From NCBI GenBank assembly GCA_017306865.1, contig JAFKHH010000019.1:1-64000 (forward strand): a stretch of 64,000 nt of DNA, in the 5' to 3' direction. The notes under the pieces are model-generated. The model searched no databases. It had not been told where the DNA came from and saw nothing but the letters and a program-made list of their open reading frames with translations. A program made the translations under genes and the position numbers. Origin of the DNA: Filimonas sp. GTDB taxonomy: Bacteria; Bacteroidota; Bacteroidia; Chitinophagales; Chitinophagaceae. Positions 39,545-57,046 of this stretch are shown piece by piece; positions within the stretch are counted from its first letter, which is position 1; each line of letters opens with the position of its first letter.

Positions 39545-39558
39545 TGCAATCGATTGCA
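39545..39558. promoter_or_regulatory. LacI-type operator 1 of the xylan locus
   Basis: TGCAATCGATTGCA is a perfect 14-bp palindrome with the central CG typical of LacI/GalR-family operators. It is about 305 bp upstream of the GH3 start codon, and 282 bp from operator 2, a distance compatible with DNA looping. Confidence 0.65.
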
Positions 39559-39826
39559 CTTTTCAAAAGTTCCCTTATTTTTAATCTGCTAAACGATTTG
39601 ATTGCTGTACCAAACGATTGCTGATAATGCTTGTAAACACAGGATTGCTATGCTGTACCAAAGCTGCCTATACGGCGGCTGTATTGACTTTCAGAGATAA
39701 TTCCATTTATTTTTCTACAGTTATAGACTACGCCTGTTTGATTGATTCAGAACCGGGATTTATTATTTAGCAGACTTTTTATTGGCCAGGGCAAAGCAGC
39801 CATTCGCAATTTTTTGTGTCAATTAA

Positions 39827-39840
39827 TGAAATCGATTGCA
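39827..39840. promoter_or_regulatory. LacI-type operator 2 of the xylan locus
   Basis: TGAAATCGATTGCA differs from operator 1 at one base and lies 22 bp before the GH3 start codon, where a bound repressor would block transcription or initiation. Confidence 0.65.
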
Positions 39841-39862
39841 GAAAATAAAGTCAAGACTCCGT

Positions 39863-42040
39863 ATGAAGAAAATTGTATGCCTGTTCGGTATCCTTTCTAT
39901 GGGTACGCTGTGCATGGCACAGACCAAAGCCACGTACTTAGACCCGGCACAGCCTTTAGAGAAAAGGGTGAACAACCTTATTTCACAACTGACATTGGAA
40001 GAGAAAGTTCAGCAACTTATTTACAACAGCCCGGCAATAGACAGGCTAAAAATACCTGCCTATAACTGGTGGAATGAGGCATTGCATGGCGTAGGCCGCT
40101 CAGGCGCTGCAACCGTTTTTCCACAAGCAATAGGCATGAGCGCAACGTTTGATGACGACCTGTTGTACCGTGTTTCAACAGCGATCAGCGATGAAGCACG
40201 CGCTATGTACAACGCTTCTATTGCAAAGGGTTATCACCAGCAATATGCGGGGCTTACATTCTGGACACCTAACATCAACATTTTTCGCGATCCACGCTGG
40301 GGACGCGGCCAGGAAACATACGGTGAAGATCCATACCTGACATCGCGCATGGGCGTTGCATTTGTAAAAGGATTGCAAGGCAACGATCCCAGATACCTCA
40401 AAGTGGCCGCATGTGCCAAACACTTTGCTGTACACAGTGGCCCTGAAAAATTGCGTCACGAGTTTAACGCAGTTGCCTCTATAAAAGACCTGCGCGAAAC
40501 ATACCTGCCGGCATTTAAGGCACTTGTAGATGCCAAAGTAGAAGCGGTCATGTGTGCTTACAACAGAACAAATACAGAACCTTGCTGCGCCAATACATTT
40601 TTATTACAGGATGTGCTGCGCGATGAATGGAAGTTTAAAGGCCACGTTGTCTCTGACTGCTGGGCCATTACAGACTTCTACGAAGGACATAAAGTTGTAG
40701 CCAACAGTGCGCAAGCGTCTGCACTTGCTGTTAAGCGTGGTGTAAACCTGAACTGTGGCAATGAATTTCCTGCGCTGGTAGACGCGGTAAAACAAAACCT
40801 GATCACAGAAAAAGAGATAGATAGTTCATTAGCCATCCTGCTGCGTACACGTTTTAAGCTGGGTATGTTCGACCCGAAAGGTTCAACACCGTATGACAAA
40901 CTTTCACCAGATGTGATCAATAGTGCAGATCATAGAAAACTTGCGCGTGAAGTAGCACAGAAATCTATTGTACTGCTAAAGAATAATGGCGTATTGCCAT
41001 TGCGCAACGACCTTTCCTTATACTATGTAACAGGCCCCAACGCAGCAAGCGTAGATGCGCTGATGGGAAATTATTACGGTGTGAACCCGCAAATGGTTAC
41101 TATACTGGAAGGATTGACCGGTGCCATAAAACCAGGCAGCCAGTTACAATACAAACCAGGCTGTTTACTTGACCGCGACAATGTAAACCCCATAGACTGG
41201 ACCACAAGTGATGCCAAGAAAGCTGATGCAACAATCGTAGTATTAGGCATTACTGGTTTATTGGAAGGAGAAGAAGGTGAATCTATTGCGTCACCTAATG
41301 CTGGTGACAGGCTGGATTACAACATCCCTCAAAACCAAATCAGGTTCCTGCAAACATTACGCAAGGACAATAAGAAACCGATCATCGCTGTGGTTACAGG
41401 TGGTAGCCCGATGAACCTTGCAGACATTCATGAGCTGGCAGATGCAGTACTACTGGCATGGTATCCGGGAGAAGAGGGCGGCAATGCAGTAGCAGATGTA
41501 GTGTTTGGTAAAGTATCCCCATCAGGTAAGCTACCAGTAACCTTCCCTAAGTCGTTAGATCAATTACCTGCGTATGAAAACTATTCTATGCAGGGCAGAA
41601 CATATCGCTTTATGAAAGCCGAACCTATGTATCCGTTTGGCTTTGGCTTAAGCTACGGCAGGTTTGAATACGGGCCTGCAAAAACTGCAACAACAACTAT
41701 TTCTAAAAAACAATCATTTACGGTTACCACTACACTTACTAACAAAGGCAAAGCAGAAAGCGAAGAAGTAGTGCAATTGTATATAACGGATGTAGACACG
41801 AAGGAAAACGCACCTATCTATGCGTTGAAGGGATTTAAGCGTGCAAAACTTGCTGCCGGTGCATCTAAAGAAGTTTCGTTTACGGTAACACCAGAAATGT
41901 TGTCTGTGGTAAATGAAAAAGGAGAAAGCGTTATAGACAATGGCCATTATAAATTATACATAGGTAGTGCTTCACCATCTGCAAGAAACATTGAGTTGGG
42001 CGGAAGCAAACCTGCAGAGCTGGTGGTGACGGTGAAATAG
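39863..42040 (+). CDS. GH3 beta-xylosidase-like glycoside hydrolase
   Basis: 725 residues with a signal peptide (IVCLFGILSMGTLCMAQ) starting at the ATG 39863; the frame is open to 39836 but that start is less likely. The N-terminal GH3 barrel includes VVSDCWAITDFY, where the Asp is the expected nucleophile, and the C-terminal sandwich carries LLEGEEGESIASPNAGDRLDYNIP (landmark: GEEGESI). A fibronectin-like domain ends the protein. The family includes beta-glucosidases and beta-xylosidases; the xylan setting favours xylosidase. Operator 2 is 22 bp upstream. Confidence 0.92.
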   Translation: MKKIVCLFGILSMGTLCMAQTKATYLDPAQPLEKRVNNLISQLTLEEKVQQLIYNSPAIDRLKIPAYNWWNEALHGVGRSGAATVFPQAIGMSATFDDDLLYRVSTAISDEARAMYNASIAKGYHQQYAGLTFWTPNINIFRDPRWGRGQETYGEDPYLTSRMGVAFVKGLQGNDPRYLKVAACAKHFAVHSGPEKLRHEFNAVASIKDLRETYLPAFKALVDAKVEAVMCAYNRTNTEPCCANTFLLQDVLRDEWKFKGHVVSDCWAITDFYEGHKVVANSAQASALAVKRGVNLNCGNEFPALVDAVKQNLITEKEIDSSLAILLRTRFKLGMFDPKGSTPYDKLSPDVINSADHRKLAREVAQKSIVLLKNNGVLPLRNDLSLYYVTGPNAASVDALMGNYYGVNPQMVTILEGLTGAIKPGSQLQYKPGCLLDRDNVNPIDWTTSDAKKADATIVVLGITGLLEGEEGESIASPNAGDRLDYNIPQNQIRFLQTLRKDNKKPIIAVVTGGSPMNLADIHELADAVLLAWYPGEEGGNAVADVVFGKVSPSGKLPVTFPKSLDQLPAYENYSMQGRTYRFMKAEPMYPFGFGLSYGRFEYGPAKTATTTISKKQSFTVTTTLTNKGKAESEEVVQLYITDVDTKENAPIYALKGFKRAKLAAGASKEVSFTVTPEMLSVVNEKGESVIDNGHYKLYIGSASPSARNIELGGSKPAELVVTVK

Positions 42041-42346
42041 TAATTGTCAGAGGGCTAAATTGTTTAATTGTTTTTTGATGCAAGATGATGGCTTTCTTTT
42101 AACCACAAAGATTCACAAGGCAAGCACAAGGCTCACAAGGGTTTTCCTTGTGCCCTTTGTGAGAACTTAGTGGCCTTTGTGGTTCATACAAACCGGATGC
42201 TGAATAGTGACAAAAAGTACAAGTGTGCGACGCAACAGAAGTTCAATCGTTATTCTTCTGCCCGGTTCAAAAAGATTCATACTGCATCACTCTATATTCT
42301 TTGTTCATTATTCATAAACTTTTTTAATAAATAAAATAATACTGCT
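42041..42346. other. Intergenic region with CACAAGG-type repeats between GH3 and susC
   Basis: No gene in about 300 bp. Short related words (CACAAGG, CCTTGTG, CTTTGTG, CCTTTGTGGTT) recur and can pair, for example CACAAGG near 42126 with CCTTGTG near 42146. This belongs to the dispersed intergenic repeat family seen again at 49.2, 51.1, 55.8 and 63.4 kb. It may hold the susC promoter. Confidence 0.5.
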
Positions 42347-45300
42347 ATGAATTGCTGGTCTAAAGATTGTTTGCAAAAACTCGCGATTCTTTTCTGCGCC
42401 ATGTTGGTCTGCGTCTTGCAGGTTACGGCACAGGTAAAGACGGTACTCGTAAAAGGCGTTGTCCGGGACGAAAGCGGCGCCATACTACCGAACGCGTCCA
42501 TAGTTGTTTCCGGTGGCACTACCGGAACAGCCTCAGGGGAAGACGGAAGTTTTTCCCTGCAAGTACCACTGAACAGTACGATTACTGTTTCTTCCGTTGG
42601 TTACGACTCCTACTCTATTAAGATTACAAAAGAAGAAACCCAACTTGTACTTCAACTGCACAATTCAAAAAAGGAATTGGAGCAGGTAGTGGTAGTAGGT
42701 TACGGTACGCAGAAGAAGAAAGATGTTACAGGTGCTGTAACTGTAGTAACTGCAAAGGCTTTAAAAGAAGTGCCTACCGCTAACTTTCAAAATGCGTTGC
42801 AGGGACATGCACCTGGCGTGGATGTTCAAACAGTTGGTACTTCACCCGGTTCTGGTGCAGTTATCCGCATTCGCGGTATCCGCTCCGTGCTTGGAAGCAA
42901 CGCTCCTTTAATAGTAGTAGACGGTATTCCTTATGGCGGCAATCTCAATGATATTAACACGGATGATATTGCATCATTAAATATTTTGAAAGATGCATCG
43001 GCAACGGCTATTTATGGTAGCCGTGGTTCTAACGGCGTTATCATCATCACTACCAAACGAGGCAGCTCCGGTATTGCCAGGGTAGATTACAATGGTTACT
43101 ATGGCATTGGTACTGTGGCAAATAAATACCCTGTATTTAACGGCCCTGAATATATAGCCATGCACAGTATTGCAGATGCTACTGGTACAGGTTTTCAACC
43201 GGATGAAATAAAAAATATAGCAGCAGGCAGATATACCGATTGGCAGAATCTCATGTATCAAAATTCGATTAAGACAAACCACTACATCACTGTTTCGGGT
43301 GGTAACGATGGTTCCTCTTATTCGCTGGGTGGTGGCTTCTACAAAGAGACAGCCGTACTGCCTGGCCAGGATTATCAACGTGGCTCTTTAAGAGTATCAC
43401 TTGAGTCTAAAGTAGGTAAATGGTTAAAAGTAGGTGTAAACTCCATGAATAGCCTGAGCATTCAGAAAGGTGCCCAGTTCGTAAACGGCAGTACCATGTT
43501 CCCTACGCTGGCAACCAGTCCTTTGGTAAGTCCTTATGACAGCACTGGCGCCATTGTTTTCAACGCCATGGGACGTGGTAACCCTAACGATGCGCAAGGC
43601 AACTATAGCCCGTTATTATTAAAGAACAATAACGGCATGTGGAAGGATAGAAAAAGAATCATACATACATTCAATAGCCTCTTTGCAGAAGCAAACCTTT
43701 ATAAAGGCATAAAATACCGCTTTAACCTGGGCCTTGATTTTTCACAGGAAGAAGATGCACAGTTTAAAGCAGGAGACCATTACAATGGTACAACCAACCC
43801 GGCCACTAACTCGAACCCTAGCTTCTTTAGACCACTAAACGGCAACACTGCTTCAGTAAATAATATTGAGAACTGGTCTTACACAGCAGAAAATTTATTA
43901 ATGTACGATAAGGATTTTGGCAAGAGCCGTATCAGCGCAACAGCCTTATACAGCATACAACAACAACAGGTTCATAACACGTATGCCAGCAAAGACTCCA
44001 TGTATTCAGACCAGACGCAATACTTTGATATGTCCCAGGCATCGCCAACTCCGATACCTGTAATTTCCGGCGGAGAAGCATCTTCTACTATCATTTCTTA
44101 TATGGGACGTGTCAACTATACTTACGACAACAAGTATATGCTTACCGTAACATACAGGAATGACGGTTCTTCCGTATTGGCTGCAGGACATAACTGGCAT
44201 CAATTTGCAGCGGCATCTGCCGGCTGGAATATTATGAACGAAAACTTTATAAAAGACAATACGAAACTGAGCTGGATCAGTCAACTGAAATTAAGAGCAG
44301 GCTATGGACAAACGGCTTCACAGGCAGTAGGTGCATATTCTTCTTTAGGTAGTGTAACAAACAATAACGGCCTTGCTAACCTTGGAGGTGATATGAGTAA
44401 GAGCACTATCGTAAAATACAATTATGGACAGGGCGTACAGGTTGGTTACTACTTAGCAGGGTTACCTAACCCGGACCTGGATTGGGAATATACCAATACG
44501 CTGAACGTAGGTTTAGATTATGGCTTCTTAAACAATCGCATTACGGGCAGCATTGATTTTTACAGTGCAGTTACCAATAAATTGCTGTTCTCTCAAAACT
44601 TACCTACTTCTTCCGGCGTAAGCAACCCTTACCCGGTAAACGTTGGACAAATGAAGAACTGGGGTATGGAATTCTCTGTTTCTTCTTTGAATATTAAACC
44701 AACTAAAGCAGACGGATTTACCTGGACTACTGATCTGAATTTATTCTTCAACAGGAACAAACTCACCAAACAAATTGGTACCAACAACCAGAATATAGGC
44801 AACCAGTTGTTTACCGGTTATTCCATGACCTCTATTTATGATTACAACAAGTTAGGTATATGGCAAACGAACGAAACGGCAGATGCTGCTAAATACGGCG
44901 CAGCACCAGGTATGATTAAAATACAGGATTATGATGGTGATGGAAAAATAACTACAGCAGACAGACACATTATTGGCAATGGCGATCCTAAAATACAGGG
45001 TGGTATGACCAATACGTTCAGCTATAAAGGAGTGGACCTGTCAATAAGCATGTACGGACGCTTTGGTGGTTTATTAATAAGCCAGGTACATCAATGGCAG
45101 TCTTCTTACCTGACGCAATTAGATGCAGGCTCCAGCCTTGGCAGAAACCAGATAAAGGTAGATTACTGGACACCAAACAATCCGACTAACTGGTTCCCAA
45201 CTATTGCAAATGGTACGAACGGATGGAGTACTGCTGCTACAGCGTGGCAAACCCTGGGCTATTACAATGCTTCTTTCCTGCAAATAAGAGCGATCAATTT

Positions 45301-45565
45301 AGGATATACGTTTAAAGATAATTTACTGAAACAAATAGGTGTTCATTCACTCCGCGTTTACGCTACAGTAGACAACGTTGCGTTCCTGTTCTCTCCGTAC
45401 ATGCGCCAGACAGGTATAGCACCTATAGCTACCAACCAGGGATCATCAGGTGTTAGTAACCCGGATAACTTACGTGCAAATACAAACGGTAATGCTATGA
45501 CGACTATCAGCGTATCTACACCACTGACGAGGAATTATATGTTCGGCGTAAATGTGAATTTTTAA
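42347..45565 (+). CDS. SusC/RagA-family TonB-dependent outer-membrane transporter
   Basis: 1,072 residues, full length. A signal peptide is followed by a carboxypeptidase-regulatory-like domain (VKGVVRDESGAILPNASIVV), a TonB-box-like region and plug (VVVVGYGTQKKKDVTGAV, then DGIPYGGNLNDINTDDIAS), then a 22-strand-type barrel ending in GVNVNF. It imports xylo-oligosaccharides in complex with the SusD protein encoded 20 bp downstream. The ligand is inferred from the neighbours. Confidence 0.97.
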   Translation: MNCWSKDCLQKLAILFCAMLVCVLQVTAQVKTVLVKGVVRDESGAILPNASIVVSGGTTGTASGEDGSFSLQVPLNSTITVSSVGYDSYSIKITKEETQLVLQLHNSKKELEQVVVVGYGTQKKKDVTGAVTVVTAKALKEVPTANFQNALQGHAPGVDVQTVGTSPGSGAVIRIRGIRSVLGSNAPLIVVDGIPYGGNLNDINTDDIASLNILKDASATAIYGSRGSNGVIIITTKRGSSGIARVDYNGYYGIGTVANKYPVFNGPEYIAMHSIADATGTGFQPDEIKNIAAGRYTDWQNLMYQNSIKTNHYITVSGGNDGSSYSLGGGFYKETAVLPGQDYQRGSLRVSLESKVGKWLKVGVNSMNSLSIQKGAQFVNGSTMFPTLATSPLVSPYDSTGAIVFNAMGRGNPNDAQGNYSPLLLKNNNGMWKDRKRIIHTFNSLFAEANLYKGIKYRFNLGLDFSQEEDAQFKAGDHYNGTTNPATNSNPSFFRPLNGNTASVNNIENWSYTAENLLMYDKDFGKSRISATALYSIQQQQVHNTYASKDSMYSDQTQYFDMSQASPTPIPVISGGEASSTIISYMGRVNYTYDNKYMLTVTYRNDGSSVLAAGHNWHQFAAASAGWNIMNENFIKDNTKLSWISQLKLRAGYGQTASQAVGAYSSLGSVTNNNGLANLGGDMSKSTIVKYNYGQGVQVGYYLAGLPNPDLDWEYTNTLNVGLDYGFLNNRITGSIDFYSAVTNKLLFSQNLPTSSGVSNPYPVNVGQMKNWGMEFSVSSLNIKPTKADGFTWTTDLNLFFNRNKLTKQIGTNNQNIGNQLFTGYSMTSIYDYNKLGIWQTNETADAAKYGAAPGMIKIQDYDGDGKITTADRHIIGNGDPKIQGGMTNTFSYKGVDLSISMYGRFGGLLISQVHQWQSSYLTQLDAGSSLGRNQIKVDYWTPNNPTNWFPTIANGTNGWSTAATAWQTLGYYNASFLQIRAINLGYTFKDNLLKQIGVHSLRVYATVDNVAFLFSPYMRQTGIAPIATNQGSSGVSNPDNLRANTNGNAMTTISVSTPLTRNYMFGVNVNF

Positions 45566-45585
45566 ACGACTAAAACAAACAGGCA

Positions 45586-47466
45586 ATGAAACGAATAAAA
45601 AAATATATATACTTACTGGCAACCGGGGCTGTAATAATGACCGCGAATAGTTGCAGTAACAAATTAAAGGAAACGCCTTATACGGTAAATACCGTAGCTA
45701 TGTTTCAGAATGCACAAGGCATACAACTGGCACTGAATGGCGTTTACTCCGGCATGCGCTACATATACGGCCCGGAAGGTGCCAATATAATTGGTGATGC
45801 TGGTACCGATATGTGGTGGGGCAATGCAGGTGGGGCAGCGGGTGCCTACCAGATCAGCGCCTATACATTTGACTATACTGATGGTTCTATTCTAACACTG
45901 TGGAACAGGACATTTAATGGCATCAATATGTGCAATGGCATTATTAAATGGGCACCGGGCATTGCAGGCATAGATACAGCCAATGTTATAGGCCAGGCCC
46001 GTTTCTTAAGAGCGCTGAGCTACCTGAACCTCGTATCCCAGTTTGGTGCAATACCGGTAGACCTCGGCAGTGGTGATTATGCTTTTAACCAATCTTCTTT
46101 TGCAGGGTTTAACCGTTTGCCACTGGCAGACATCCTGACAAAAGACTGGAAACTGATCATCAGCGATTTGACGTATGCTGCACAAAATTTACCCAACACG
46201 CGTATAACTACTGGCTCAAATGCAGCCTTTACGCTATACAAAGCAGCGGCTTATGGCTTGCTGGCAAAAGCATATATCTTCAAAGGATACTCTGCCAACG
46301 CTGAAGCTACAGATTGGCAAAATGCGTACAATGCAGCTATGCAGGTTATCAATAACCAGGCTACATACGGCTGCAGCCTGCTAAAAAACTATGCAGATGT
46401 AACAGCGCCTGCTATCAATACAATAACAGGACAAGGTGGTAATTATAACCCGGAAATATTATTTGCCATAGAACGTATTCCCGGCGATCTGCCTTCTAAT
46501 GAAGAAAGTGTTTACAATGGGTTAGCGGCCACTTCCGGCGGTAAGGATGTAAACGCATCTAACGATTACAATATGAGTTATGATGCAACACCTGCACCTG
46601 TAGCAAGCAGCAGCGGCAAACCTTGCGCTACACGTACACCGCTATACGGTCGTCCATTGCGTGTGATCTGCCCTACAGATTTTTTATACAATACGCTTTT
46701 TGCTGATAAAACAAACGACAGCCGCTACGATGGCACTTTCAACAGCGTTTACTTATGCACTGTACAAACAACGTCTAATTACCAGTCAGGAAGTAGCTTT
46801 TCAGGAAACTTCACATACAACATAGGTGATACAGCTATTGTAGTAGCACGTAATATTACAGAGTACAATACTTTAGTAGCAGCACAATTAAAATCTGCAA
46901 AACCTTACCGCGTAATCAGCCCGGCTGAGATGCCAGGTATTAGTGGCACTTATCCCGGTGCTGCCGGTGCTGCCCAGCCTGTGCTAATGCCTTCTATGAT
47001 GAAATACTGGGACCCTGCTCGGCCTAATGCAAATGAAGGTGGCGGCAGACCTTACCCGGTACTCAAACTATCTGAAGTTTACCTATTGGCAGCAGAAGCT
47101 GCTATGCAACTGGGTAACAACCCGGAAGCAGTAAATAAAGTGAATGTGCTAAGAACACGCGCTGCTTTTAGAAGCACGTTGTCTGCAACAGATGTAACAA
47201 CAAGAACAAATGCGATGCTGGCTGCAACGCCTGCAACCATTACACTGGATTTTATTTTGGATGAACATGGCCGTGAGTTGGCAGGTGAGGCAAACCGTTG
47301 GGTGGACCTTGCTATGCGCAAGCAACTGGTGAATCGCGTAAAGCTCTACAACCCACCGGCTGTAGCCAAAATACAGGATTATATGATGTTGAGACCTATT
47401 CCGAAATCCCAGTTGGATAACCTGACAGTAGCAAACCCTGCTCAGTATCAAAATCCGCAATGGTAA
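45586..47466 (+). CDS. SusD/RagB-family glycan-binding lipoprotein
   Basis: 626 residues with a lipoprotein signal (MTANSCSNKL) and TPR-like helices of the SusD fold (KAAAYGLLAKAYIFKGY and the C-terminal LDFILDEHGRELAGEANRWVDLAMRKQL, landmark: DEHGRELAGE). It sits on the cell surface, capping the SusC barrel encoded 20 bp upstream. Longer than many SusD proteins because of loop insertions. Confidence 0.96.
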   Translation: MKRIKKYIYLLATGAVIMTANSCSNKLKETPYTVNTVAMFQNAQGIQLALNGVYSGMRYIYGPEGANIIGDAGTDMWWGNAGGAAGAYQISAYTFDYTDGSILTLWNRTFNGINMCNGIIKWAPGIAGIDTANVIGQARFLRALSYLNLVSQFGAIPVDLGSGDYAFNQSSFAGFNRLPLADILTKDWKLIISDLTYAAQNLPNTRITTGSNAAFTLYKAAAYGLLAKAYIFKGYSANAEATDWQNAYNAAMQVINNQATYGCSLLKNYADVTAPAINTITGQGGNYNPEILFAIERIPGDLPSNEESVYNGLAATSGGKDVNASNDYNMSYDATPAPVASSSGKPCATRTPLYGRPLRVICPTDFLYNTLFADKTNDSRYDGTFNSVYLCTVQTTSNYQSGSSFSGNFTYNIGDTAIVVARNITEYNTLVAAQLKSAKPYRVISPAEMPGISGTYPGAAGAAQPVLMPSMMKYWDPARPNANEGGGRPYPVLKLSEVYLLAAEAAMQLGNNPEAVNKVNVLRTRAAFRSTLSATDVTTRTNAMLAATPATITLDFILDEHGRELAGEANRWVDLAMRKQLVNRVKLYNPPAVAKIQDYMMLRPIPKSQLDNLTVANPAQYQNPQW

Positions 47467-47491
47467 TTAATCAAAGACTAAAATTTAAGTT

Positions 47492-49099
47492 ATGAACTAT
47501 AAATTAAAATATTTCATGTTTGCATTATTGGCAGCAGGGGCACTTACCTCCTGCTCCAAAATGAAGGACATTGGTATTCTGAACACCGGAAATTACGGTG
47601 ATACTTCCGGCACATTAAAATCAGTTGCCGGTAGTATGGCCATCGGCTTTGCAGCGTATCAGGGTGATGCGAACTATGCAAAATATTTCCCGATCATTGC
47701 AAAAGAAGGTAATTACCTGACACCCGGCAATGAAATGAAACACGGCTCTATTGTACAGAGTGATGGTTCATTAAAATTCACCAGTGCAGACGCTATCGTA
47801 AGCCAGGCTACAGCCGCAGGTTTAAATGTATTCGGGCATACACTTTGCTGGCACTCACAACAGAATGCAACATACATAAAGAGTTATGCTGGCATAACTG
47901 TTCCTGCTGCTACGGAACTATTAACCAATCCGGGTTTTGAATCAGGCACAAACGGCTGGAGCGTCTTTAACACAAACGGCGCAACCATTACGTTTACAAC
48001 AGGTGCTAACGCGCACGCAGGCACCGGTTATATGCAAGTGGTAAACCCTACTTCACAAACCGGCAACCAGTGGAAGGTGCAGGTATCAAGCGCCGCATTT
48101 GCTACAACGCCGGGTAAACAATATATCATTTCTTATTGGGTAAAAGCGGCAGCTTCCGGTGGTTCTATCAGGCTTTCTACAGGCCCGTCTGCTGCACAAT
48201 ACCAGGGCGACCAAACCATAGGCACAGCATGGCAGCAGGTTAGCTGGACCATTACAGCAACACTTACTTCTACCACTTTCCTGTTTGATATGGGACAGGT
48301 TGCCAACACTTATTACATTGATGATGCCAGTGTGAAAGAAGCAGTACAAACTCCTTCTGGTGCACAAGTAGCATTGAAAGTAGATACGGCTATGAATAAA
48401 TTCATTACCGGTATGGTAACGCATTACAAAGGCACGGTGAAAGCATGGGATGTAGTAAATGAACCATTAACAGATAACGGCACATTGCGTACAGGTACAA
48501 ATACCGGAGGTGTTGCTGCTGGTTCTGATATATTCTTCTGGGCTGATTATTCTTACAATGGTGTTCCTAAAGATTATGCAGTAAGAGCATTTCAATACGC
48601 TGCTGCTGCCGATCCTGCGGCGCTATTGTTCATCAACGATTACAACTTAGAATCCAGCAAAGCAAAAACAGACTCAATGGTAGCTTACATTACCTATCTG
48701 AAAGGTAAGGGAGCTAAAATTGATGGTATCGGTACACAAATGCACTGCGACGCCTTAACTACAACGTACACTGGCATAGACTATATGTTCCAGCAACTGG
48801 CTGCTACAGGCTTACAGGTGAAAATATCCGAACTGGATGTTACCATCAAAGGCTCACCAACTGATCCTACTATTGGTGATCCTCAAACGTTGGGTTACCA
48901 GGCGGCAATGTATCAATACATCGTTAACTCATACTTCAAATACGTTCCTGCTGCACAGCGCTATGGTATTACCGTATGGGGTGTAGACGATCCGGATAGC
49001 TGGAGAGCAGCCAAACTGCCACTGCTTTGGGATAAAAACTTTGCTAAGAAGCCGGCATATTCTGCAGTCTTTAATGCATTGAAAAATGCGGGGAAATAA
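47492..49099 (+). CDS. Surface GH10 endo-xylanase with inserted carbohydrate-binding module
   Basis: 535 residues with a lipobox (LTSCSKMKD). The GH10 barrel is split: the N-terminal strands to about residue 135, an inserted CBM4/9-like beta-sandwich (TNPGFESGTNGWSVF to YYIDDASVKE, about 145-285), then the rest of the barrel with the acid/base Glu in AWDVVNEPL and the nucleophile Glu in VKISELDVT. Such inserted-CBM GH10 lipoproteins are the surface xylanases of Bacteroidota xylan loci. It follows susD directly (26-bp gap). Confidence 0.95.
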   Translation: MNYKLKYFMFALLAAGALTSCSKMKDIGILNTGNYGDTSGTLKSVAGSMAIGFAAYQGDANYAKYFPIIAKEGNYLTPGNEMKHGSIVQSDGSLKFTSADAIVSQATAAGLNVFGHTLCWHSQQNATYIKSYAGITVPAATELLTNPGFESGTNGWSVFNTNGATITFTTGANAHAGTGYMQVVNPTSQTGNQWKVQVSSAAFATTPGKQYIISYWVKAAASGGSIRLSTGPSAAQYQGDQTIGTAWQQVSWTITATLTSTTFLFDMGQVANTYYIDDASVKEAVQTPSGAQVALKVDTAMNKFITGMVTHYKGTVKAWDVVNEPLTDNGTLRTGTNTGGVAAGSDIFFWADYSYNGVPKDYAVRAFQYAAAADPAALLFINDYNLESSKAKTDSMVAYITYLKGKGAKIDGIGTQMHCDALTTTYTGIDYMFQQLAATGLQVKISELDVTIKGSPTDPTIGDPQTLGYQAAMYQYIVNSYFKYVPAAQRYGITVWGVDDPDSWRAAKLPLLWDKNFAKKPAYSAVFNALKNAGK

Positions 49100-49105
49100 T
49101 ACAAG

Positions 49106-49173
49106 CGTGAATCGTGAAACGATAATCGTGAGTAGTGAGTAGTGTATTCACGATTGCCGTCTCACGATTCACG
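49106..49173. terminator. Nested inverted repeat after the GH10 gene (possible terminator)
   Basis: CGTGAATCGTGA (49106-49117) and TCACGATTCACG (49162-49173) form perfect 12-bp arms; AATCGTG (49124-49130) with CACGATT (49149-49155) pair inside. It starts 7 bp after the stop codon. There is no T run, so it may be a dispersed palindrome rather than an intrinsic terminator. Confidence 0.45.
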
Positions 49174-49324
49174 ATAGTCTTTGCGCCCTTTGCGTGAAAC
49201 ATAGCAGTATGAATATAAAAAGGACAGTTTCAGTTTGTTGACATCGCAGCCCGGCACGTTTGCATAGCAAATACACCGGGCTGTTTCTTTTTATTTGAAA
49301 TTATTTTTATAAAACAGATTACTT

Positions 49325-50941
49325 GTGAAAAAACTTTTGCCCGTTTTATTATCCTTATCCGTTATTGTTGCCGCACATGCACAACAAGGCAATGCGCCTA
49401 AGATCGTACAACTCAATGGGCGTAACAGCTTATGGGTAGATGGCGCGCCTTTCCTTCTATTGGGCGGTGAACTCGGCAACTCCAGTGCGTCCAGCAATGC
49501 CTATATGCGACCCGTATGGCCAAAGTTAAAAGCGATGCACCTGAATGCTGTATTAACTCCGGTGTATTGGGAACTAATGGAGCCGGAAGAAAATAAATTT
49601 GACTTCGCATTACTTGATACGGCTATTTACAATGCACGCCTGAACAATATGAAACTGGTATTGCTTTGGTTTGGCTCATGGAAAAATAGCATGAGCTGCT
49701 ATGCACCGGCATGGGTAAAGAAAAACACAAGCCGTTTCCCTCGTGCGCAAGACCAGCAAGGGAAAAATCAGGAGATACTTTCGGCATTTGAAGACAACAA
49801 TCTACAGGCAGACATCAAAGCATTTAAAGCATTGATGACGCACATTAAATCAATAGATGCCAATCACCGCACAGTGCTAATGATACAGGTAGAAAATGAA
49901 ATAGGTATGCTACCGGAGGCAAGGGAATACACTACCACAGCCAACAATCTTTTTCAAAAAGAGGTACCTGCTACCTTGGTTACCTATTTGAAAAAAAATA
50001 AAGACAAGCTGGTGCCGGAGTTTAAAGAACGCTGGGCTAAAACCAACTTTACAGCTACAGGCAATTGGGAAAGCATGTTTGGCAAAAGCCTCGAAACAGA
50101 TGAAATATTCCAGGCATGGCATTATGCAAAGTATGCAGGCGCAGTTGCAGCCGCAGGAAAATCTATTTATGATATTCCTATGTTTGTGAACGCAGCGCTT
50201 AATTACAAAAATGTAAAACCAGGCCAATACCCAAGTGCAGGGCCATTGCCGCAAGTAATGGACATCTGGCAGGCAGCAGCGCCTCCCATTGATATGCTAT
50301 CGCCGGATTTCTACAATCCTTATTTCAAACACTACTCTGAACTATACGTAAGACAGAACAATCCATACTTCATTCCTGAAATACGTTTTGAACCGGATGA
50401 CGCAGCAAAAGTGTTTTATGCCATCGGGCATCATAATGCAATGGGCTTCTCTCCTTTTTCCATAGAAGATACGAACCACCCCGAAGATGAACCTGTAGCG
50501 AAGAGCTATGCAATACTGCATCAGCTTGCGCCTTACCTGTTGCAGCAAAAAGGAAATGTAGCAATAGACGGTGTACTACTGGAAAAATCATCCCCTACAC
50601 AAATAGTGAAGCTGGGTAAATATGAAATAAAGGTCTCGCATGAGTTAACGCTTGGCTGGTCGCCCAAAGCAAAAGATTCCACCTGGGCAATGGCTGGCGG
50701 CCTTATTATACAAACAGGTGAAGACGATTTTATCATTGCAGGCACAGGTATTGTTTGTACCTTCTCCCAGCCGGGCAGTGACAAGATCACCGGGATATTA
50801 CAGGCTGATGAAGGACATTTTGAAAATGGCAAATGGATAGCAGGCAGGCGTATGAATGGTGACCAGGACCACCAGGGAAGACATATAAGAATAGCTGCGG
50901 GAGATTGGGGAATACAGAAAGTGAGCCTATACAAGTACTAA
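49325..50941 (+). CDS. GH35-like beta-galactosidase family protein (DUF5597 C-terminus)
   Basis: 538 residues with a GTG start (no nearby ATG) and a signal peptide (LLPVLLSLSVIVAAHAQ). The GH35/GH42-like barrel includes LLLGGELGNSSASS and the acid/base segment MIQVENEIGML. The C-terminal part resembles the DUF5597 beta domain. The family hydrolyses beta-galactosides or arabinosides; within a xylan locus it may remove side-chain sugars. It has a longer upstream gap (225 bp), so possibly a separate transcript. Confidence 0.85.
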   Translation: MKKLLPVLLSLSVIVAAHAQQGNAPKIVQLNGRNSLWVDGAPFLLLGGELGNSSASSNAYMRPVWPKLKAMHLNAVLTPVYWELMEPEENKFDFALLDTAIYNARLNNMKLVLLWFGSWKNSMSCYAPAWVKKNTSRFPRAQDQQGKNQEILSAFEDNNLQADIKAFKALMTHIKSIDANHRTVLMIQVENEIGMLPEAREYTTTANNLFQKEVPATLVTYLKKNKDKLVPEFKERWAKTNFTATGNWESMFGKSLETDEIFQAWHYAKYAGAVAAAGKSIYDIPMFVNAALNYKNVKPGQYPSAGPLPQVMDIWQAAAPPIDMLSPDFYNPYFKHYSELYVRQNNPYFIPEIRFEPDDAAKVFYAIGHHNAMGFSPFSIEDTNHPEDEPVAKSYAILHQLAPYLLQQKGNVAIDGVLLEKSSPTQIVKLGKYEIKVSHELTLGWSPKAKDSTWAMAGGLIIQTGEDDFIIAGTGIVCTFSQPGSDKITGILQADEGHFENGKWIAGRRMNGDQDHQGRHIRIAAGDWGIQKVSLYKY

Positions 50942-50948
50942 GTACAAG

Positions 50949-51145
50949 CTATTTAAGATTTGAGATTTAAAATTTGAAATGACCGAAGCGGCTAGACCTA
51001 TAAGTTTTTAAAACCCTATGGTCTTTCTTAAACTTGGCGATCCTCTGTGTTTCTGTGCCTCTGTGGCAAATTTCTTCTTTGCGTTCTCTGCGTATCCTTT
51101 GCGCCCTTTGCGATACTTATGCGCCTTTGCGTGAAAAATTATAAC
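50949..51145 (+). repeat. Leader repeat ahead of the acetylesterase gene (inverted partner at 55.8-55.9 kb)
   Basis: Low-complexity ATTTGAGATTTAAAATTTGAAATGA, then CGAAGCGGCTAGACCT, and later TTCTTTGCGTTCTCTGCGTA and CCTTTGCGCCCTTTGCGATA (given in pieces). The same blocks, in the same order relative to the downstream gene, lie ahead of the GH115 gene on the opposite strand. So two convergent genes have a shared leader. Confidence 0.7.
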
Positions 51146-53080
51146 ATGAAAAGAAAATTCATTATTGTTTTTGTGTTCTTACTCGTGGCAGTTATTAAAC
51201 TCCACGCACAAATACGTTTGCCACGTCTTGTGAGCGATAGCATGGTGCTGCAACGCGATGCGCCAGTGAAAATATGGGGCTGGGCTTCGGCAGGTGAAGC
51301 GGTTACCATCGCTTTCAACAAGAAAACATATCATGCAACTACAGATGCATCCGGCAAGTGGCAAACTGTATTGGCAGCTACTAAGGCCGGTGGCCCTTAT
51401 ACAATGGAAATAAGCGGAAGCAACAAGCTGCTACTAAAAGATATTTTGCTTGGTGATGTGTGGGTTTGCTCCGGGCAATCTAATATGGAACTACCCATGA
51501 GTCGTGTGATAGACAGGTATCCAAATGAAATTGCAACTGCTAACAACGCCAAGATCCGTTTATTTAATGCGCCCAAGACTTATTCTTTTACAGATGCGAA
51601 CACAGACTTCAATGCTGGTAGCTGGATCACTACTACACCGCAAAGTATTTTAAACTTCACGGCTGTTGGTTATTTCTTCGCAAAATCATTGTACGAAAAA
51701 TATCACATTCCTATTGGCCTCATCAATGTAAGCCTCGGCGGCTCTCCTGCTGAAGCCTGGCTGAGTGAGGACGCATTGCAGGAATTTCCTGCCTATCTGC
51801 AAACAGCCAACAAATACAAAGACGGCAACCTGGTAAAACAGACCATGCAATCGGATGCCGCTGCATCTAATGATTGGTACACGAAACTATGGCAGTCAGA
51901 CAAAGGCATGCAGGAAACAGTAAAGTGGTACGAGCCAAATTACAACAGTAGTAACTGGGCTACCATGAGTATACCGGGTTTGTGGGATGACCAGGGTTTG
52001 AAAAACACGCTCGGCGTAGTATGGTTTCGCAAAGAGGTAGACATTCCTGCGTCCATGCTTAACAAACCTGTATTGCTTCGCCTTGGCACCATCATAGACC
52101 GTGATTCCGTTTATGTAAATGGAAAATTTGTCGGCACTACGGGTTATCAATATCCGCCGCGCAAATACACCATACCTGCAGGCATTTTACACGAAGGCAA
52201 AAACAACATTACTATTCGCGTGATCAACTATGCAGGCAAAGGCGGCTTTACCAAAGAGAAGCCTTATCAACTTATTGCGGATAATAATGTAGTTGACATA
52301 AGTGGAAAATGGCAGTACCAGTTAGGTACAACTGCACAGCCGATTCCCGGCAGCACCACATTCCAGTATCAACCGGAAGGGTTATACAACGGCATGATCG
52401 CACCACTTTTAAACTATCGCATTAAAGGTGCGATCTGGTTCCAGGGTGAATCTAACACAGGCAGGGCTGGCGAATACACAAAACTCTTTAGTAAGGTGAT
52501 CACTACATGGAGAGAGAAATGGCAACAAGGTAATTTCCCGTTCCTGTTTGTACAATTAGCAAACTACATGGAAGCAAAGAAACAACCATCCGAAAGTGGC
52601 TGGGCGGCACTACGTGACGCACAACGCAGAACACTGGCCGTACCAAACACGGCGATGGCCGTAACCATAGACATTGGCGAATGGAATGACTTGCACCCGC
52701 TGAACAAACAAGATGTGGGTAAACGTCTTGCGCTGGCAGCACAGCGGCTGGCTTACAATGACAAAAAAATTGTGTACTCCGGGCCTTTATATGAATCAAT
52801 GCAAAGTGAGGGTAACAAGATCATATTAACATTTTCAAATACTGGCAGTGGTTTAATAGCTAAAGATGGAAAGCCGTTAGCGCAATTCGCGATTGCAGGA
52901 AGTGATCAAAAATTTGTGTGGGCCAATGCAGTTATTGAAAATAATAAGGTTGTTGTATCTGCACCGGGCATAGAACATCCTGTTGTAGTTCGTTACGCGT
53001 GGGCAGATAATCCTGAAGGGGCGAATTTGTATAATAAAGAGGGATTGCCAGCATCGCCATTTACAACGGCAGGCCACTAA
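51146..53080 (+). CDS. Sialate-O-acetylesterase-family carbohydrate esterase (acetylxylan esterase candidate)
   Basis: 644 residues from the ATG at 51146 (signal peptide FIIVFVFLLVAVIKLHAQ); the frame upstream runs through the repeat and is rejected. The SGNH esterase core shows WVCSGQSNMELPMS (Ser in the GQSN motif), GSPAEAWLS and IDIGEWNDLHPLNK with Asp-x-x-His. A jelly-roll insert splits the core (about 290-430). This architecture is seen in CE20-type acetylxylan esterases. It should deacetylate xylan for the GH10 and GH115 enzymes. Confidence 0.88.
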   Translation: MKRKFIIVFVFLLVAVIKLHAQIRLPRLVSDSMVLQRDAPVKIWGWASAGEAVTIAFNKKTYHATTDASGKWQTVLAATKAGGPYTMEISGSNKLLLKDILLGDVWVCSGQSNMELPMSRVIDRYPNEIATANNAKIRLFNAPKTYSFTDANTDFNAGSWITTTPQSILNFTAVGYFFAKSLYEKYHIPIGLINVSLGGSPAEAWLSEDALQEFPAYLQTANKYKDGNLVKQTMQSDAAASNDWYTKLWQSDKGMQETVKWYEPNYNSSNWATMSIPGLWDDQGLKNTLGVVWFRKEVDIPASMLNKPVLLRLGTIIDRDSVYVNGKFVGTTGYQYPPRKYTIPAGILHEGKNNITIRVINYAGKGGFTKEKPYQLIADNNVVDISGKWQYQLGTTAQPIPGSTTFQYQPEGLYNGMIAPLLNYRIKGAIWFQGESNTGRAGEYTKLFSKVITTWREKWQQGNFPFLFVQLANYMEAKKQPSESGWAALRDAQRRTLAVPNTAMAVTIDIGEWNDLHPLNKQDVGKRLALAAQRLAYNDKKIVYSGPLYESMQSEGNKIILTFSNTGSGLIAKDGKPLAQFAIAGSDQKFVWANAVIENNKVVVSAPGIEHPVVVRYAWADNPEGANLYNKEGLPASPFTTAGH

Positions 53081-53117
53081 GACACGAAGACAGAAAGGCA
53101 ACACCAAGATATTCTCT

Positions 53118-53164
53118 CGCTGAAAACGCTGAAATCGCAGAAAAATAATTCCGCGTTTTCAGCG
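53118..53164. terminator. Inverted repeat between convergent genes (possible bidirectional terminator)
   Basis: CGCTGAAAACGC (53118-53129) and GCGTTTTCAGCG (53153-53164) are perfect 12-bp arms, loop 23. It lies between the acetylesterase stop (53080) and the convergent GH115 stop (53295). Direct GTACTTT repeats at about 53270-53290 are also present. Confidence 0.5.
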
Positions 53165-53294
53165 CTTTCCGCGAGCCCTTTTTTGCACAACACAGAAATG
53201 AACAAAAATATCTGCGTCCCTCCCCGCCCTCTACGATCCCCACAGTACTGTTGGGACGATTAAATTCCTCGTACTTTGTACTTTGTACTTATAT

Positions 53295-55805
53295 TCATTC
53301 CTCCGGCCCTAAATAGCTTTCTTTCAAGCCGCCGAAATCTATTACGATCTTCTGCAATACCACAGCAGGGTCTACACGCCAGAATTTCAATGTGTGTTTT
53401 CCTTTCGCAGTAAAGTGATGCTTTGATACCAATATCCTGATATTATCCGCCACGCCTTTCTCCCATGCTTTCTCTGAAGTGTCCGGCTCTATATTCACGA
53501 TCTGTGGTTTTTCATTATCTACAGAGATTGCATATTTCAAGCCACCGGAAGAAGTAAAATCTATTGTTGGTGAAATGTAACAGTGTACCGCAAAGTATCC
53601 CGTATCTTTTATCGTAATATCATACTCCAACCGCGGCGCATCATTCAATGGCAAAGAAGGTTTTGCTGTAACAGGAAAGAAGGTAACGCCAGACAACGTT
53701 CTGCCATAGCCTGGCAATATTTTTACCTTTATTTCGCCTTTATTAATTGCCCGGCTAAAATGCGCTGCTTCTATTGCTTTATATCCATCATTAGCAGTCG
53801 TGCTATTCGTTAATACATCATTGTTCTTGATCTCAGATGAAGCAAGTCGTACAACTGCTGGCATTACGTTTTTATCCGGTTGCTGCCAGTAGGTATAACC
53901 AATATGCGTTTGGTCCATCATGTGATTCCATTTGCCACCAGCTAACGTCTTATTGTAGTACAGCGAAAGCAATGAATCATTTGCATACAACTGCACAGCC
54001 TTGTCTGCCATAGCATTGGCGTTACCGTTATATTGCTTTGCATAATGCCTATTCTTCGCCACAGTTACATACAGTTCATTCAGGTTGGCACAGGCTTTTA
54101 CGGGAAACAGAACGAGTTGATAATAGGCATCTTTATATTTCTCATCCAGTTTATCATAAATGGACTGAGCATGTGTTGCCAGTTGGTTATACGCATCTGC
54201 TACGCGGTTCGCCTCATTATAGTTCAGTAAACTATAAGTGTCCGGTGACAACAGCTCTGGCTTACGCCTGCCATTATATTTTGTGTATTTATTTATAATA
54301 TCTGCTATCTCGCCTGCGTACTTCATGCCAAACTGTTCGCTACTCCAGCGTGTTGTATAGTTATCCAGGTCATCAATATCCATTTTAGATGGCGCCCATG
54401 CATAGTCAAGAAAAAAAGAAATGGGAAACTCCATCGGTTTAATGTCACCTACGTTTACAATCCATATCTGCCTGGCATTATATTCATAAGCGAGGTGCAT
54501 TTGTTCCCACACTTTAGAGATCGGGTTTGTATTTAGCCATTTATAATTGCGTGGCCCTCCCACATAGTCAAAGTGGTAGTAAATACCATAACCACCTGCG
54601 CGTTTAGGTTCGTTCAGCTTGGGTAACTTTCGTATGTTTCCCCAGTTATCATCACATAACAACAATGTTACATCATCCGGCACACGCATACCTTTGTCAT
54701 AATAATCCTGCACTTCTTTATACAAAGCCCATGATTGTGGAATATCTTTTGCAGGTTTACCTGTTACTTCTTCTAAAATAGTACGCTGGTCTTTTACAAT
54801 TCTTTCCAGTAGTGCAATATTACTTCCTTCCGTCATTGGCATATCACCATCGCCACGCATGCCTATGCTTACAATGCTCTCATGCGACTTCATATTTTGA
54901 ATGCCTTTGCGCCAGAAATTTTGCAACACCTCCTTGTTGTGGTCATAGTTCCACTCCCCCTTTCCATATCTTTTCCACTCCTGTTGCGCCCGCATCATTG
55001 GCTCGTGGTGAGACGTTCCCATCACTATACCGTATTCATCCGCCAATACAGGGTTCAACGTATCATCATCATTAAACGCATTGCCCCACATAGCAGGCCA
55101 GAGATAATTTCCTTTCAACCGGAGGATCAGTTCAAACACTTTTTCATAGAAGAGATGATTAAAGCCGCCAAACTTTTCCTTTGTCCAGCCAGACAGTGCA
55201 GGCGCTTCATCGTTGATAAAAATGCCACGATATTTTATTTCCGGTTCACCTGCCGTATATATACCCGGCTGTACAAATAGTGATGTGTGTTTTACAACCG
55301 GTACGTCTGCCCACCAATACCAGGGCGATACTCCTATCTTAGCAGAGAGGTCATATATACCATAGATCGTTCCGCGTTTATCACTACCCGCTATTACTAC
55401 CGCCTTATCTACACCTTTAAATGGTTTGTCAATTGTTTGCACAATAAACTTCTCCCATTTGTTTTGCAACGCCGCTCCATCTATCTTTTTTTCTTTTATC
55501 AATGCATCGATCCATTCATTCTTACCAACCGTCCCAATGATCACGACAGCATTTCCCGTTGGGGATTCTGTTGATACATTGGGTTGTATATTGGTTACAG
55601 CATTTATATCTGTCTGCATGTTTTTAACCGCGCGTACCACGCCGGCATATTCGTTTGTGCTGATATAAATTCCCACTGCATTCCCATTTGTAACTAATGG
55701 AAATGCCCGGGATATTTTCTCAAATGAGATATAAGAGGAATCCTTTTTTGCAAAAGCAAAAGAAAGACTCATCAGCAAAACTATTAGCAGAGATAATTTT
55801 TTCAT
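53295..55805 (-). CDS. GH115 alpha-glucuronidase
   Basis: 836 residues from the ATG at 55805 with signal peptide (LSLLIVLLMSLSFAFAKK); an upstream open frame lies in the repeat. The family blocks include KRGTIYGIYDLSAKIGVSPWYWWADVPV, GTSHHEPMMRAQQEWKR and the catalytic-region EPKRAGGYGIYYHFDYVGGP (landmarks). GH115 removes (4-O-methyl)glucuronic acid from xylan, which makes this a glucuronoxylan locus. It is convergent with the acetylesterase gene. Confidence 0.95.
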   Translation of the reverse strand: MKKLSLLIVLLMSLSFAFAKKDSSYISFEKISRAFPLVTNGNAVGIYISTNEYAGVVRAVKNMQTDINAVTNIQPNVSTESPTGNAVVIIGTVGKNEWIDALIKEKKIDGAALQNKWEKFIVQTIDKPFKGVDKAVVIAGSDKRGTIYGIYDLSAKIGVSPWYWWADVPVVKHTSLFVQPGIYTAGEPEIKYRGIFINDEAPALSGWTKEKFGGFNHLFYEKVFELILRLKGNYLWPAMWGNAFNDDDTLNPVLADEYGIVMGTSHHEPMMRAQQEWKRYGKGEWNYDHNKEVLQNFWRKGIQNMKSHESIVSIGMRGDGDMPMTEGSNIALLERIVKDQRTILEEVTGKPAKDIPQSWALYKEVQDYYDKGMRVPDDVTLLLCDDNWGNIRKLPKLNEPKRAGGYGIYYHFDYVGGPRNYKWLNTNPISKVWEQMHLAYEYNARQIWIVNVGDIKPMEFPISFFLDYAWAPSKMDIDDLDNYTTRWSSEQFGMKYAGEIADIINKYTKYNGRRKPELLSPDTYSLLNYNEANRVADAYNQLATHAQSIYDKLDEKYKDAYYQLVLFPVKACANLNELYVTVAKNRHYAKQYNGNANAMADKAVQLYANDSLLSLYYNKTLAGGKWNHMMDQTHIGYTYWQQPDKNVMPAVVRLASSEIKNNDVLTNSTTANDGYKAIEAAHFSRAINKGEIKVKILPGYGRTLSGVTFFPVTAKPSLPLNDAPRLEYDITIKDTGYFAVHCYISPTIDFTSSGGLKYAISVDNEKPQIVNIEPDTSEKAWEKGVADNIRILVSKHHFTAKGKHTLKFWRVDPAVVLQKIVIDFGGLKESYLGPEE

Positions 55806-55908
55806 ATAATAAGATTTCACGCATAAGTATCGCAAAGGGCGCAAAGAATACGCAGAGAACACAAAGAAGGTCTAGCCGCTTCGATCATTTCAAATCTCAA
55901 ATTTCAAA
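55806..55908 (-). repeat. Leader repeat ahead of the GH115 gene (inverted partner at 50.9-51.1 kb)
   Basis: Reverse complement carries ATTTGAAATTTGAGATTTGA, then CGAAGCGGCTAGACCT, TTCTTTGTGTTCTCTGCGTA and CTTTGCGCCCTTTGCGATAC, as in the leader of the acetylesterase gene. It also separates GH115 from the GH10 gene. Confidence 0.7.
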
Positions 55909-57006
55909 TCAAAAATCCCCCCTCACAACTTCCCAATACGCTTTTTTTCTTTGCAGGTTGGTATCAAACAATAACGGATAATTTTTTCTACCGGGCACCG
56001 GGTAATCATCCAGCCACGTTTCGCGGTCAGAGATGTTCCAGAACGTTACGCCCGTTATTACTTTTTTGTATTGGCGAAACACATCGAACACCATTTTATA
56101 TTGTGCCATTTGTTTTGCCTGTAACTCCGGTGTATATGTATCGTTTTCCCCTGGCTTTTTTGTTCGCATATTCTTTTCCCACGGATATACGGACATATCC
56201 AGTTCTGTGACCTGTATTTTCAAGCCGAGCGAAGCAAATTTTTCTATTGCAGCTTTTAGCTCTCCTTGTGTTGGCTCGTAAATAGACCAATGTGCCTGCA
56301 GGCCCACGGCATCTACAGGTACGCCGGCATCATTCAGTTTCTTTAGCAGGCGATATACCCTGTCGCGTTTTTCCGGACGCTCTGTATTATAATCATTGTA
56401 AAACAAAACAGCTTTCGGATCAGCAGCATGGGCATACTCAAATGCTTTTATAATAAAGTCTTCGCCGCATATTTGATACCACAAAGAATTGCGGAGAAAC
56501 TTTGTACTGTCATCGTCGATAGCTTCGTTCACTACATCCCACGCATAGATCTTTCCTTTGTAGCGGTTCACCACAGTTGTAATATGATCTTTTAATCTTT
56601 TCAGCAATGTCTCCTTATCTACCAGTTTACCGTCAGCATTTTTAAACAGCCAGTCCGGTGTTTGTTCGTGCCAGCACAAATTATGCCCACGCACTTTCAG
56701 CCCATTGCGTTGTGCAAAAGCAACTATAGAATCTGCATCCTTCCAGTAGTATTCATTTTCCTTCGGATGGATCGGCCCCATTTTCATCGCATTCTCTGGT
56801 GTAATGCTGTTAAACTCCCGCAAGATCAAAGCAGACGCATCCGGCCGTTTCAGTGATCCCGGAGAAACAGCTACGCCAATGGGGAAATAATTTTTGTAAT
56901 AATCTTTCAGCCCTTTTCCAGGCGAATCAGTTTGTGCCGTGGCAGGCGCTACCACGCAGGCTCCACAAAGGAAGCCACAGCAAGCAATCAGCAACTTGAA
57001 GTTCAT
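55909..57006 (-). CDS. Secreted or periplasmic GH10 endo-xylanase
   Basis: 365 residues with a signal peptide (LLIACCGFLCGACVVAPATAQ), then a complete GH10 barrel: SITPENAMKMGPIHPKE, GLKVRGHNLCWHEQTPDW, acid/base Glu in AWDVVNEAIDDD, nucleophile Glu in IQVTELDMSV. There is no CBM insert, unlike the surface GH10 at 47.5 kb. It would cut the shorter oligomers after import. A LacI-type operator lies 27 bp upstream, so it belongs to the same regulon as the GH3 gene. Confidence 0.96.
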   Translation of the reverse strand: MNFKLLIACCGFLCGACVVAPATAQTDSPGKGLKDYYKNYFPIGVAVSPGSLKRPDASALILREFNSITPENAMKMGPIHPKENEYYWKDADSIVAFAQRNGLKVRGHNLCWHEQTPDWLFKNADGKLVDKETLLKRLKDHITTVVNRYKGKIYAWDVVNEAIDDDSTKFLRNSLWYQICGEDFIIKAFEYAHAADPKAVLFYNDYNTERPEKRDRVYRLLKKLNDAGVPVDAVGLQAHWSIYEPTQGELKAAIEKFASLGLKIQVTELDMSVYPWEKNMRTKKPGENDTYTPELQAKQMAQYKMVFDVFRQYKKVITGVTFWNISDRETWLDDYPVPGRKNYPLLFDTNLQRKKAYWEVVRGDF

Positions 57007-57032
57007 AAGTGAAAATTAGTTAATCAAATTTA

Positions 57033-57046
57033 TGTAATCGATTGCA
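57033..57046. promoter_or_regulatory. LacI-type operator 3 of the xylan locus
   Basis: TGTAATCGATTGCA differs at one base from operator 1 and lies 27 bp upstream of the GH10 start codon. It ties this minus-strand gene to the regulator of the plus-strand operon. Confidence 0.65.

What the first reader, a model, noticed from the sequence alone, without database searches (positions are those of the whole stretch)
39545..57046. LacI-type operators bracket the xylan locus
TGCAATCGATTGCA, TGAAATCGATTGCA and TGTAATCGATTGCA lie ahead of the first gene (two copies 282 bp apart, looping distance) and the last divergent-end gene (GH10). The pattern TGnAATCGATTGCA is a classic LacI/GalR site. Bacteroidota loci are more often controlled by hybrid two-component or ECF proteins, none of which is in this window.
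Basis: partly seen in the sequence, partly recalled or inferred. Interest (0 to 1): 0.6.

Follow-up and report, generated by a model that had tools for sequence, protein, structure and literature searches.

The report
LacI-type repressor sites controlling xylan genes
Three near-identical DNA palindromes around a xylan-degradation gene cluster look like docking sites for a LacI-type switch protein; the likely protein is encoded elsewhere, beside a pectin cluster carrying the same sites, which would tie the use of the two plant polymers together.

Summary
TGNAATCGATTNCA lies at 39545, 39827 and 57033 and has 6 places in the 6.15-Mb genome against about 0.5 expected. The other three precede a pectin SusC/SusD-GH28-pectinesterase locus, a LacI gene (18 bp before its ATG) and an AraC-GH36 pair. 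Of the genome's 11 LacI genes only that one (C1) has the motif in its own promoter. In Chitinophagaceae the motif is linked to GH115 and LacI genes. At GH10 the site fills the 19-bp spacer of a Bacteroidota-type promoter, as a repressor site would.

Two corrections. The 282-bp pair is probably not a loop: the three comparable pairs found in relatives are divergent promoters with a target gene on one side and LacI on the other. The regulator is not local: this genome lacks the xylan-linked LacI type that 61 of 65 other GH115 genomes have, and a mobile-element integrase stands where LacI stands in G029. Best reading: xylan operators served in trans by a paralogous pectin-locus LacI. Binding is untested and the effector unknown.

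The parts
39545..39558 (.). O1, perfect palindrome TGCAATCGATTGCA, 305 bp before the GH3 ATG
39537..39567 (-). possible leftward promoter TTTG-N19-TAATTTTT with O1 in its spacer
   Evidence: consensus recalled; AT-rich, could be chance
39827..39840 (.). O2, TGAAATCGATTGCA, 23 bp before the GH3 ATG (39863)
57033..57046 (.). O3, TGTAATCGATTGCA, 27 bp before the GH10 ATG
57025..57055 (-). GH10 promoter TTTG-N19-TAAATTTG with O3 filling the spacer
   Evidence: Bacteroidota consensus recalled
39863..42040 (+). GH3, probable beta-xylosidase
   Evidence: Pfam; NCBIfam best Xyl3A but under its cut-off
42347..45565 (+). SusC-like TonB-dependent receptor
45586..47466 (+). SusD-like protein
47492..49099 (+). 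GH10 xylanase with CBM4_9
49325..50941 (+). GH35-family protein
51047..53080 (+). SASA esterase, probable xylan acetylesterase
   Evidence: substrate inferred
53295..55862 (-). GH115 alpha-glucuronidase
55909..57006 (-). GH10 xylanase, first gene of the leftward pair GH10-GH115
37942..39270 (-). tyrosine integrase of a conjugative element, at the side where a LacI gene stands in G029 (not part of the regulon)

Best explanation
The three palindromes are operators of a LacI-family repressor. Without inducer a repressor dimer sits in or beside the promoters of the GH3 and GH10-GH115 operons and blocks RNA polymerase; a breakdown sugar (xylo-oligosaccharide, xylose or a uronate, unknown) releases it. 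The likely repressor is the LacI protein at G000:C1:81361-82392, outside the window, which appears to control itself and the neighbouring pectin SusC/SusD locus through the same motif. Shown: the sites, their rarity, their positions, the family-wide linkage to xylan and LacI genes, and that this is the only one of the 11 LacI genes with the motif in its promoter. Inferred: binding, repression, the choice of this LacI, the inducer.
For: 6 places in the genome, reversed control 0. C1 LacI promoter holds TGCAATCGATTGCA and CGTAATCGATTACG; none of the other 10 LacI genes has this motif within 600 bp upstream. O3 fills a TTTG-N19-TAAATTTG spacer. Of eight listed homologues of the C1 LacI at 40% identity or more, five have a GNAA[T/C]CG[A/G]TTNC site before their own gene (G029, G355, L088) or before the GH10 or GH3 gene next door (G015, G236). 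Motif-GH115 linkage outside this genome: 5 of 35 sites within 10 kb, 0.25 expected. 10 sites lie 36-167 bp before a LacI gene of the sister clade. Symmetric operator change at the orthologous place in G029.
Against: No binding or expression data. Three of the eight homologues (G006, G028, G358) have no such site nearby. L013 has an ATCAATCGATTGTG, L008 a TTCAATCGTTTGAA and L009 a CGCAACCGGTTGTG upstream, so cross-binding is possible. The C3 site stands before AraC-GH36, not a xylan or pectin gene. 27 of the 69 motif genomes lack the sister-clade LacI, and several family sites have no recognised xylan gene nearby.
Confidence: 0.7

Rival explanations
1. The sites are LacI operators, but another of the 11 LacI proteins (for example L011 or L013), or several together, binds them.
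For: L011 is the nearest relative of clade A in this genome (37% to the C1 LacI); L013 has an AATCGATT-cored near-palindrome upstream.
Against: L011 has no such site within 600 bp and no site of this pattern elsewhere in its 19-kb neighbourhood was among the genome's six; L013 lacks the outer G/C of the motif.
Confidence: 0.2
2. O1 and O2 act together as a looping pair on the GH3 promoter.
For: 282-bp spacing; pairs 61-65 bp apart at the two C1 promoters.
Against: In all three comparable pairs among held loci of relatives (221, 289, 417 bp) each site serves its own divergent gene; short C-terminus of the candidate LacI.
Confidence: 0.12
3. The palindromes are not LacI sites but something else (another regulator, a recombination or methylation site).
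For: A mobile-element integrase lies beside O1.
Against: Rarity and position before genes, linkage to LacI and xylan genes in other genomes, symmetric change in G029.
Confidence: 0.05

Closest known systems
XylR of Caulobacter and Xanthomonas (LacI family, xyl-box TGGTAGCGCTAACA)
   Same: LacI-type repressor on CG-centred palindromes before xylan and xylose genes, TonB receptors among the targets (passages of PMC10380989)
   Different: Operator core AATCGATT, not TAGCGCTA; SusC/D loci; no xylose-isomerase gene among the six places; effector unknown here
KdgR, UxaR, UxuR, UxmR of Bacteroides (LacI family, uronate regulons)
   Same: LacI-family regulators in the same phylum acting on uronate catabolism (PMC3878776 passages)
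   Different: Those are described for cytoplasmic uronate pathways; here the sites precede xylan and pectin loci. Orthology and motif were not compared
lacI gene in the xylan PULs of Gramella flava
   Same: LacI gene inside a Bacteroidota xylan PUL (figure legend of PMC5306329)
   Different: No operator or regulon seen in the passages read; here the regulator is in trans
HTCS- or ECF-controlled xylan PULs of Bacteroides
   Same: SusC/D xylan locus with GH10 and GH115-type enzymes (PMC10766802 passages)
   Different: No HTCS or ECF gene found in the window or Reg_prop match on the contig

Membership tests
LacI/GalR-family regulon | Regulator with LacI HTH and periplasmic-binding-like sensor domain | tested here: met
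   C1 LacI: PF00356 and PF13377
LacI/GalR-family regulon | Even palindromic operators with central CG | tested here: met
   TGNAATCGATTNCA; feature as given in PMC4052901
LacI/GalR-family regulon | Autoregulation, site in own promoter | tested here: met
   18 bp before the ATG of the C1 LacI; binding not shown
LacI/GalR-family regulon | Specific DNA binding released by a sugar | not testable with these tools
   needs EMSA
XylR/xyl-box type | Operator TGGTAGCGCTAACA | tested here: not met
   core is AATCGATT; xyl-box
Bacteroides KdgR/UxaR/UxuR/UxmR | Orthology and uronate effector | not tested
   no such sequence was compared; effector unknown
Locally HTCS/ECF-controlled PUL | HTCS or ECF sigma/anti-sigma gene in the locus | tested here: not met
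   50 of 63 listed window ORFs scanned; no Reg_prop match on the contig

The most novel reading that the evidence does not exclude
Regulatory capture. The ancestral xylan-linked LacI gene, divergent from GH3 across O1 and O2, was lost, perhaps when a conjugative element inserted there, leaving orphan operators; a paralogous LacI at the pectin locus took them over in trans and fused xylan and pectin degradation into one regulon. A weaker corollary: O1's leftward promoter now points at the element's integrase, so xylan supply could affect integrase expression.
Probability: 0.3. Interest if true: 0.65.

Novelty: new member of a known kind. Interest (0 to 1): 0.45.

Why it matters
It gives a specific, testable LacI regulon (operator, candidate repressor, target operons) for xylan and pectin loci in a family of Bacteroidota where local HTCS or ECF control is the usual expectation. 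It also offers a natural case of operators that seem to have outlived their local regulator, and an operator base switch in a relative with an unchanged recognition helix and an altered hinge.

Tried and rejected
Looping between O1 and O2: disfavoured.

Remnant of a lost LacI gene: tblastn of 27 relatives' LacI proteins against the window gave nothing better than E 0.09, and a clade-B LacI searched against the whole genome gave 11 matches, the known LacI genes. So the absence is seen, its cause is not.

A second weak site about 62 bp from each main site: present at the C1 LacI and SusC promoters (61-65 bp), but in the window only 4-mismatch matches, which occur about 6 per kb; dropped.

A rightward promoter before O1 (TTTG-N21-TATTTTTG) overlaps a terminator-like hairpin; not relied on. 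No convincing attachment repeats among the 20 largest families shown and no tRNA.

Effector: xylose, xylo-oligosaccharide and uronate stay open; the pectin-locus GH43 resembles beta-xylosidases and arabinofuranosidases, which does not decide it.

Limits of the counts: clade-B counts use an E-value cut-off (1e-85 to one G138 protein that was itself found through the motif), not a tree of all hits, and the listing of LacI places was capped. The genomes are related, so the Fisher P is not of independent events. Clade-B members in the trees were mostly found through the motif, so their neighbourhood is circular; searches are the better tests. The expectation of 0.4 is a rough estimate. A Fisher test on a hand-counted 195-genome table is not relied on. 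The second tree left out G339a_L209 and G180_L199 (apparently damaged or long-branched rows). A viral-contig search with the GH10 protein gave two 37% matches and was of no use.

Full report
OBSERVATION. Genome-wide TGNAATCGATTNCA has six places and the reversed pattern none; about 0.51 are expected. The looser GNAATCGATTNC has 13 places against 6 for its reversed control, so the outer TG...CA matters. The six places: three in the window; C1:65933, 102 bp before a SusC gene followed by SusD, GH28, pectinesterase, GH28, two GDSL esterases and GH43; C1:82410, 18 bp before a LacI gene; C3:331493, 132 bp before an AraC gene followed by GH36. Beside the two C1 places stand CGTAATCGATTACG palindromes. 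Of the other five looser places, three lie inside ORFs (C30:30971, C42:15951, C42:554688), one lies between two divergent ORFs (C11:61358) and one is about 105 bp before an ECF sigma gene (C42:289615).

THE LOCUS. GH3, SusC, SusD, GH10-CBM, a GH35-family protein and a SASA esterase read rightwards; GH10 and GH115 read leftwards. By enzyme content this is a glucuronoxylan utilisation locus (inference). O2 ends 23 bp before the GH3 ATG and O3 27 bp before the GH10 ATG. O3 lies exactly in the 19-bp spacer of TTTG-N19-TAAATTTG, the Bacteroidota promoter consensus (consensus recalled). Over 81 distinct sites in held loci, 6 (two of them O1 leftwards and O3) overlap such a promoter against 1.1 with shuffled flanks, a count reached in 1 of 300 shuffles: modest support for a rule, a clear case at GH10.

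WHICH REGULATOR. The genome has 11 LacI genes, none in the window. Within 600 bp upstream only the C1 gene has this motif, as TGCAATCGATTGCA plus CGTAATCGATTACG; L013, L008 and L009 have weaker relatives of it and L010 a perfect but different palindrome. Among homologues of the C1 LacI found by protein similarity eight listed ones have 40% identity or more, and five have a GNAA[T/C]CG[A/G]TTNC site: directly before the LacI gene in G355, in a Mucilaginibacter MAG (L088) and in G029; before the GH10 or GH3 gene next door in G015 and G236. G006, G028 and G358 lack one in the stretches held. In maximum-likelihood trees the C1 LacI groups with seven of these homologues (clade A, 100/99); a sister clade B holds LacIs of other Chitinophagaceae, mostly from xylan loci with the same motif. 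G006 was not in the tree.

FAMILY-WIDE TESTS. In 394 genomes of the family TGNAATCGATTGCA occurs at 106 places in 69 genomes, with 4 reversed-control matches by my reading of the table. With GH115 as an independent mark of xylan loci (195 genomes, 66 with it), 5 of the 35 sites outside this genome that lie in GH115 genomes are within 10 kb of GH115, against 0.25 expected (P 6.5e-6); the other 30 are not. Clade-B-like LacI (E <= 1e-85) is in 144 of 394 genomes. Motif and clade-B LacI co-occur in 42 genomes, motif without it in 27 (Fisher P 5e-6). 20 of 72 sites in such genomes lie within 10 kb of a listed clade-B LacI (roughly 0.4 expected), 10 of them 36-167 bp upstream. 32 of 107 GH115 matches outside this genome lie within 10 kb of one. 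61 of the 65 other GH115 genomes have one; G103, G144, G167 and G213 do not. The window's genome has none by this cut-off or in the tree.

OPERATOR CHANGE IN A RELATIVE. Its promoter site is TTTACGTAACCGGTTACGTAAA where this genome has ATTACGTAATCGATTACGTAAA: the same change in both half-sites. The recognition helix (NITPASVSRA) is identical, the hinge differs (NLKANSLRTG against NVNARLLSTG). Its GH3 (67%) has TGCAACCGGTTGCA and its GH115/SusC gap TGTAATCGGTTACA. However, GNAACCGGTTNC has 26 places in G029 against 6 for its control, several of those I fetched without a recognised xylan or pectin gene, and G029 also has two clade-B LacIs, so which protein drove the change is open.

THE PAIR O1-O2. 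In held loci of 6 kb or more there are four pairs 30-600 bp apart. The three in relatives (L193, L218, L237) have SusC or GH3 on one side and a divergent clade-B LacI on the other (LacI places). In the window the other side is the integrase 37942-39270 of a conjugative element with relaxase and tra genes at 5.7-26 kb. O1 also sits in a possible leftward promoter of the same geometry as O3. I therefore read the pair as a former divergent promoter that lost its LacI gene rather than a loop; no remnant was found, and three pairs are few.

MECHANISM. Sites close to or inside promoters, with autoregulation, fit classical LacI repression relieved by a sugar. That the pectin-locus LacI serves the xylan operators in trans is inferred from motif identity, from its being the only LacI gene with the motif, and from clade-A relatives with the motif before GH10 or GH3. 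The effector is unknown.

LITERATURE. Passages seen: PMC3878776 (Bacteroides: HTCS and SusR-like regulators for polysaccharides, four LacI uronate regulators); PMC4052901 (LacI regulons in 344 genomes, Bacteroides one group, 'xylan' 0 times in the main text); PMC5306329 (legend: lacI in Gramella xylan PULs); PMC12125979; PMC10766802 (review); PMC10380989 (xyl-box). Other papers were seen only in listings. In this open-access library the searches (0 papers; 0 papers) showed no title or abstract start describing this regulon; most listed papers were not opened.

VERDICT. A real, family-linked LacI-type operator set on a xylan locus: ordinary in kind, apparently new in lineage and target set. The unusual part is the missing local regulator and the probable takeover in trans.

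Noticed in passing
window 5701-39270: A conjugative element (relaxase, MobC, coupling protein, TraG/J/M/O/Q-type genes) ends with a tyrosine integrase next to the xylan locus; it carries Crp-like, TauE, OsmC, rhodanese/beta-lactamase-fold and sulphur-transport genes.
   Followed up: partly
L034:6615-6628 (G000:C42:289614): AGTAATCGATTACC lies about 105 bp before an ECF sigma gene followed by FecR and a large, probably SusC-like, ORF: possible contact between the LacI motif and an ECF system.
   Followed up: no
L019:3475-3488 and L114:9333-9344: Orthologous LacI promoters differ by a symmetric T/A to C/G change in the operator while the recognition helix is identical and the hinge differs: a natural test of hinge specificity.
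   Followed up: partly
L019:3912-6378: The GH95 gene next to the LacI is split over two overlapping frames (N-terminal and catalytic domains apart), a possible frameshift or assembly error.
   Followed up: no
L118 and L124 (G358, G028): These two clade-A LacIs have no CG-centred near-palindrome (12 or more of 14) in the 500 bp upstream, so their operator or autoregulation must differ.
   Followed up: partly
G000 contigs C16, C32, C42, C1: 31 Reg_prop matches, several in frames of 950-1430 aa: the genome does own hybrid-two-component-type sensors, only not on the window's contig.
   Followed up: no
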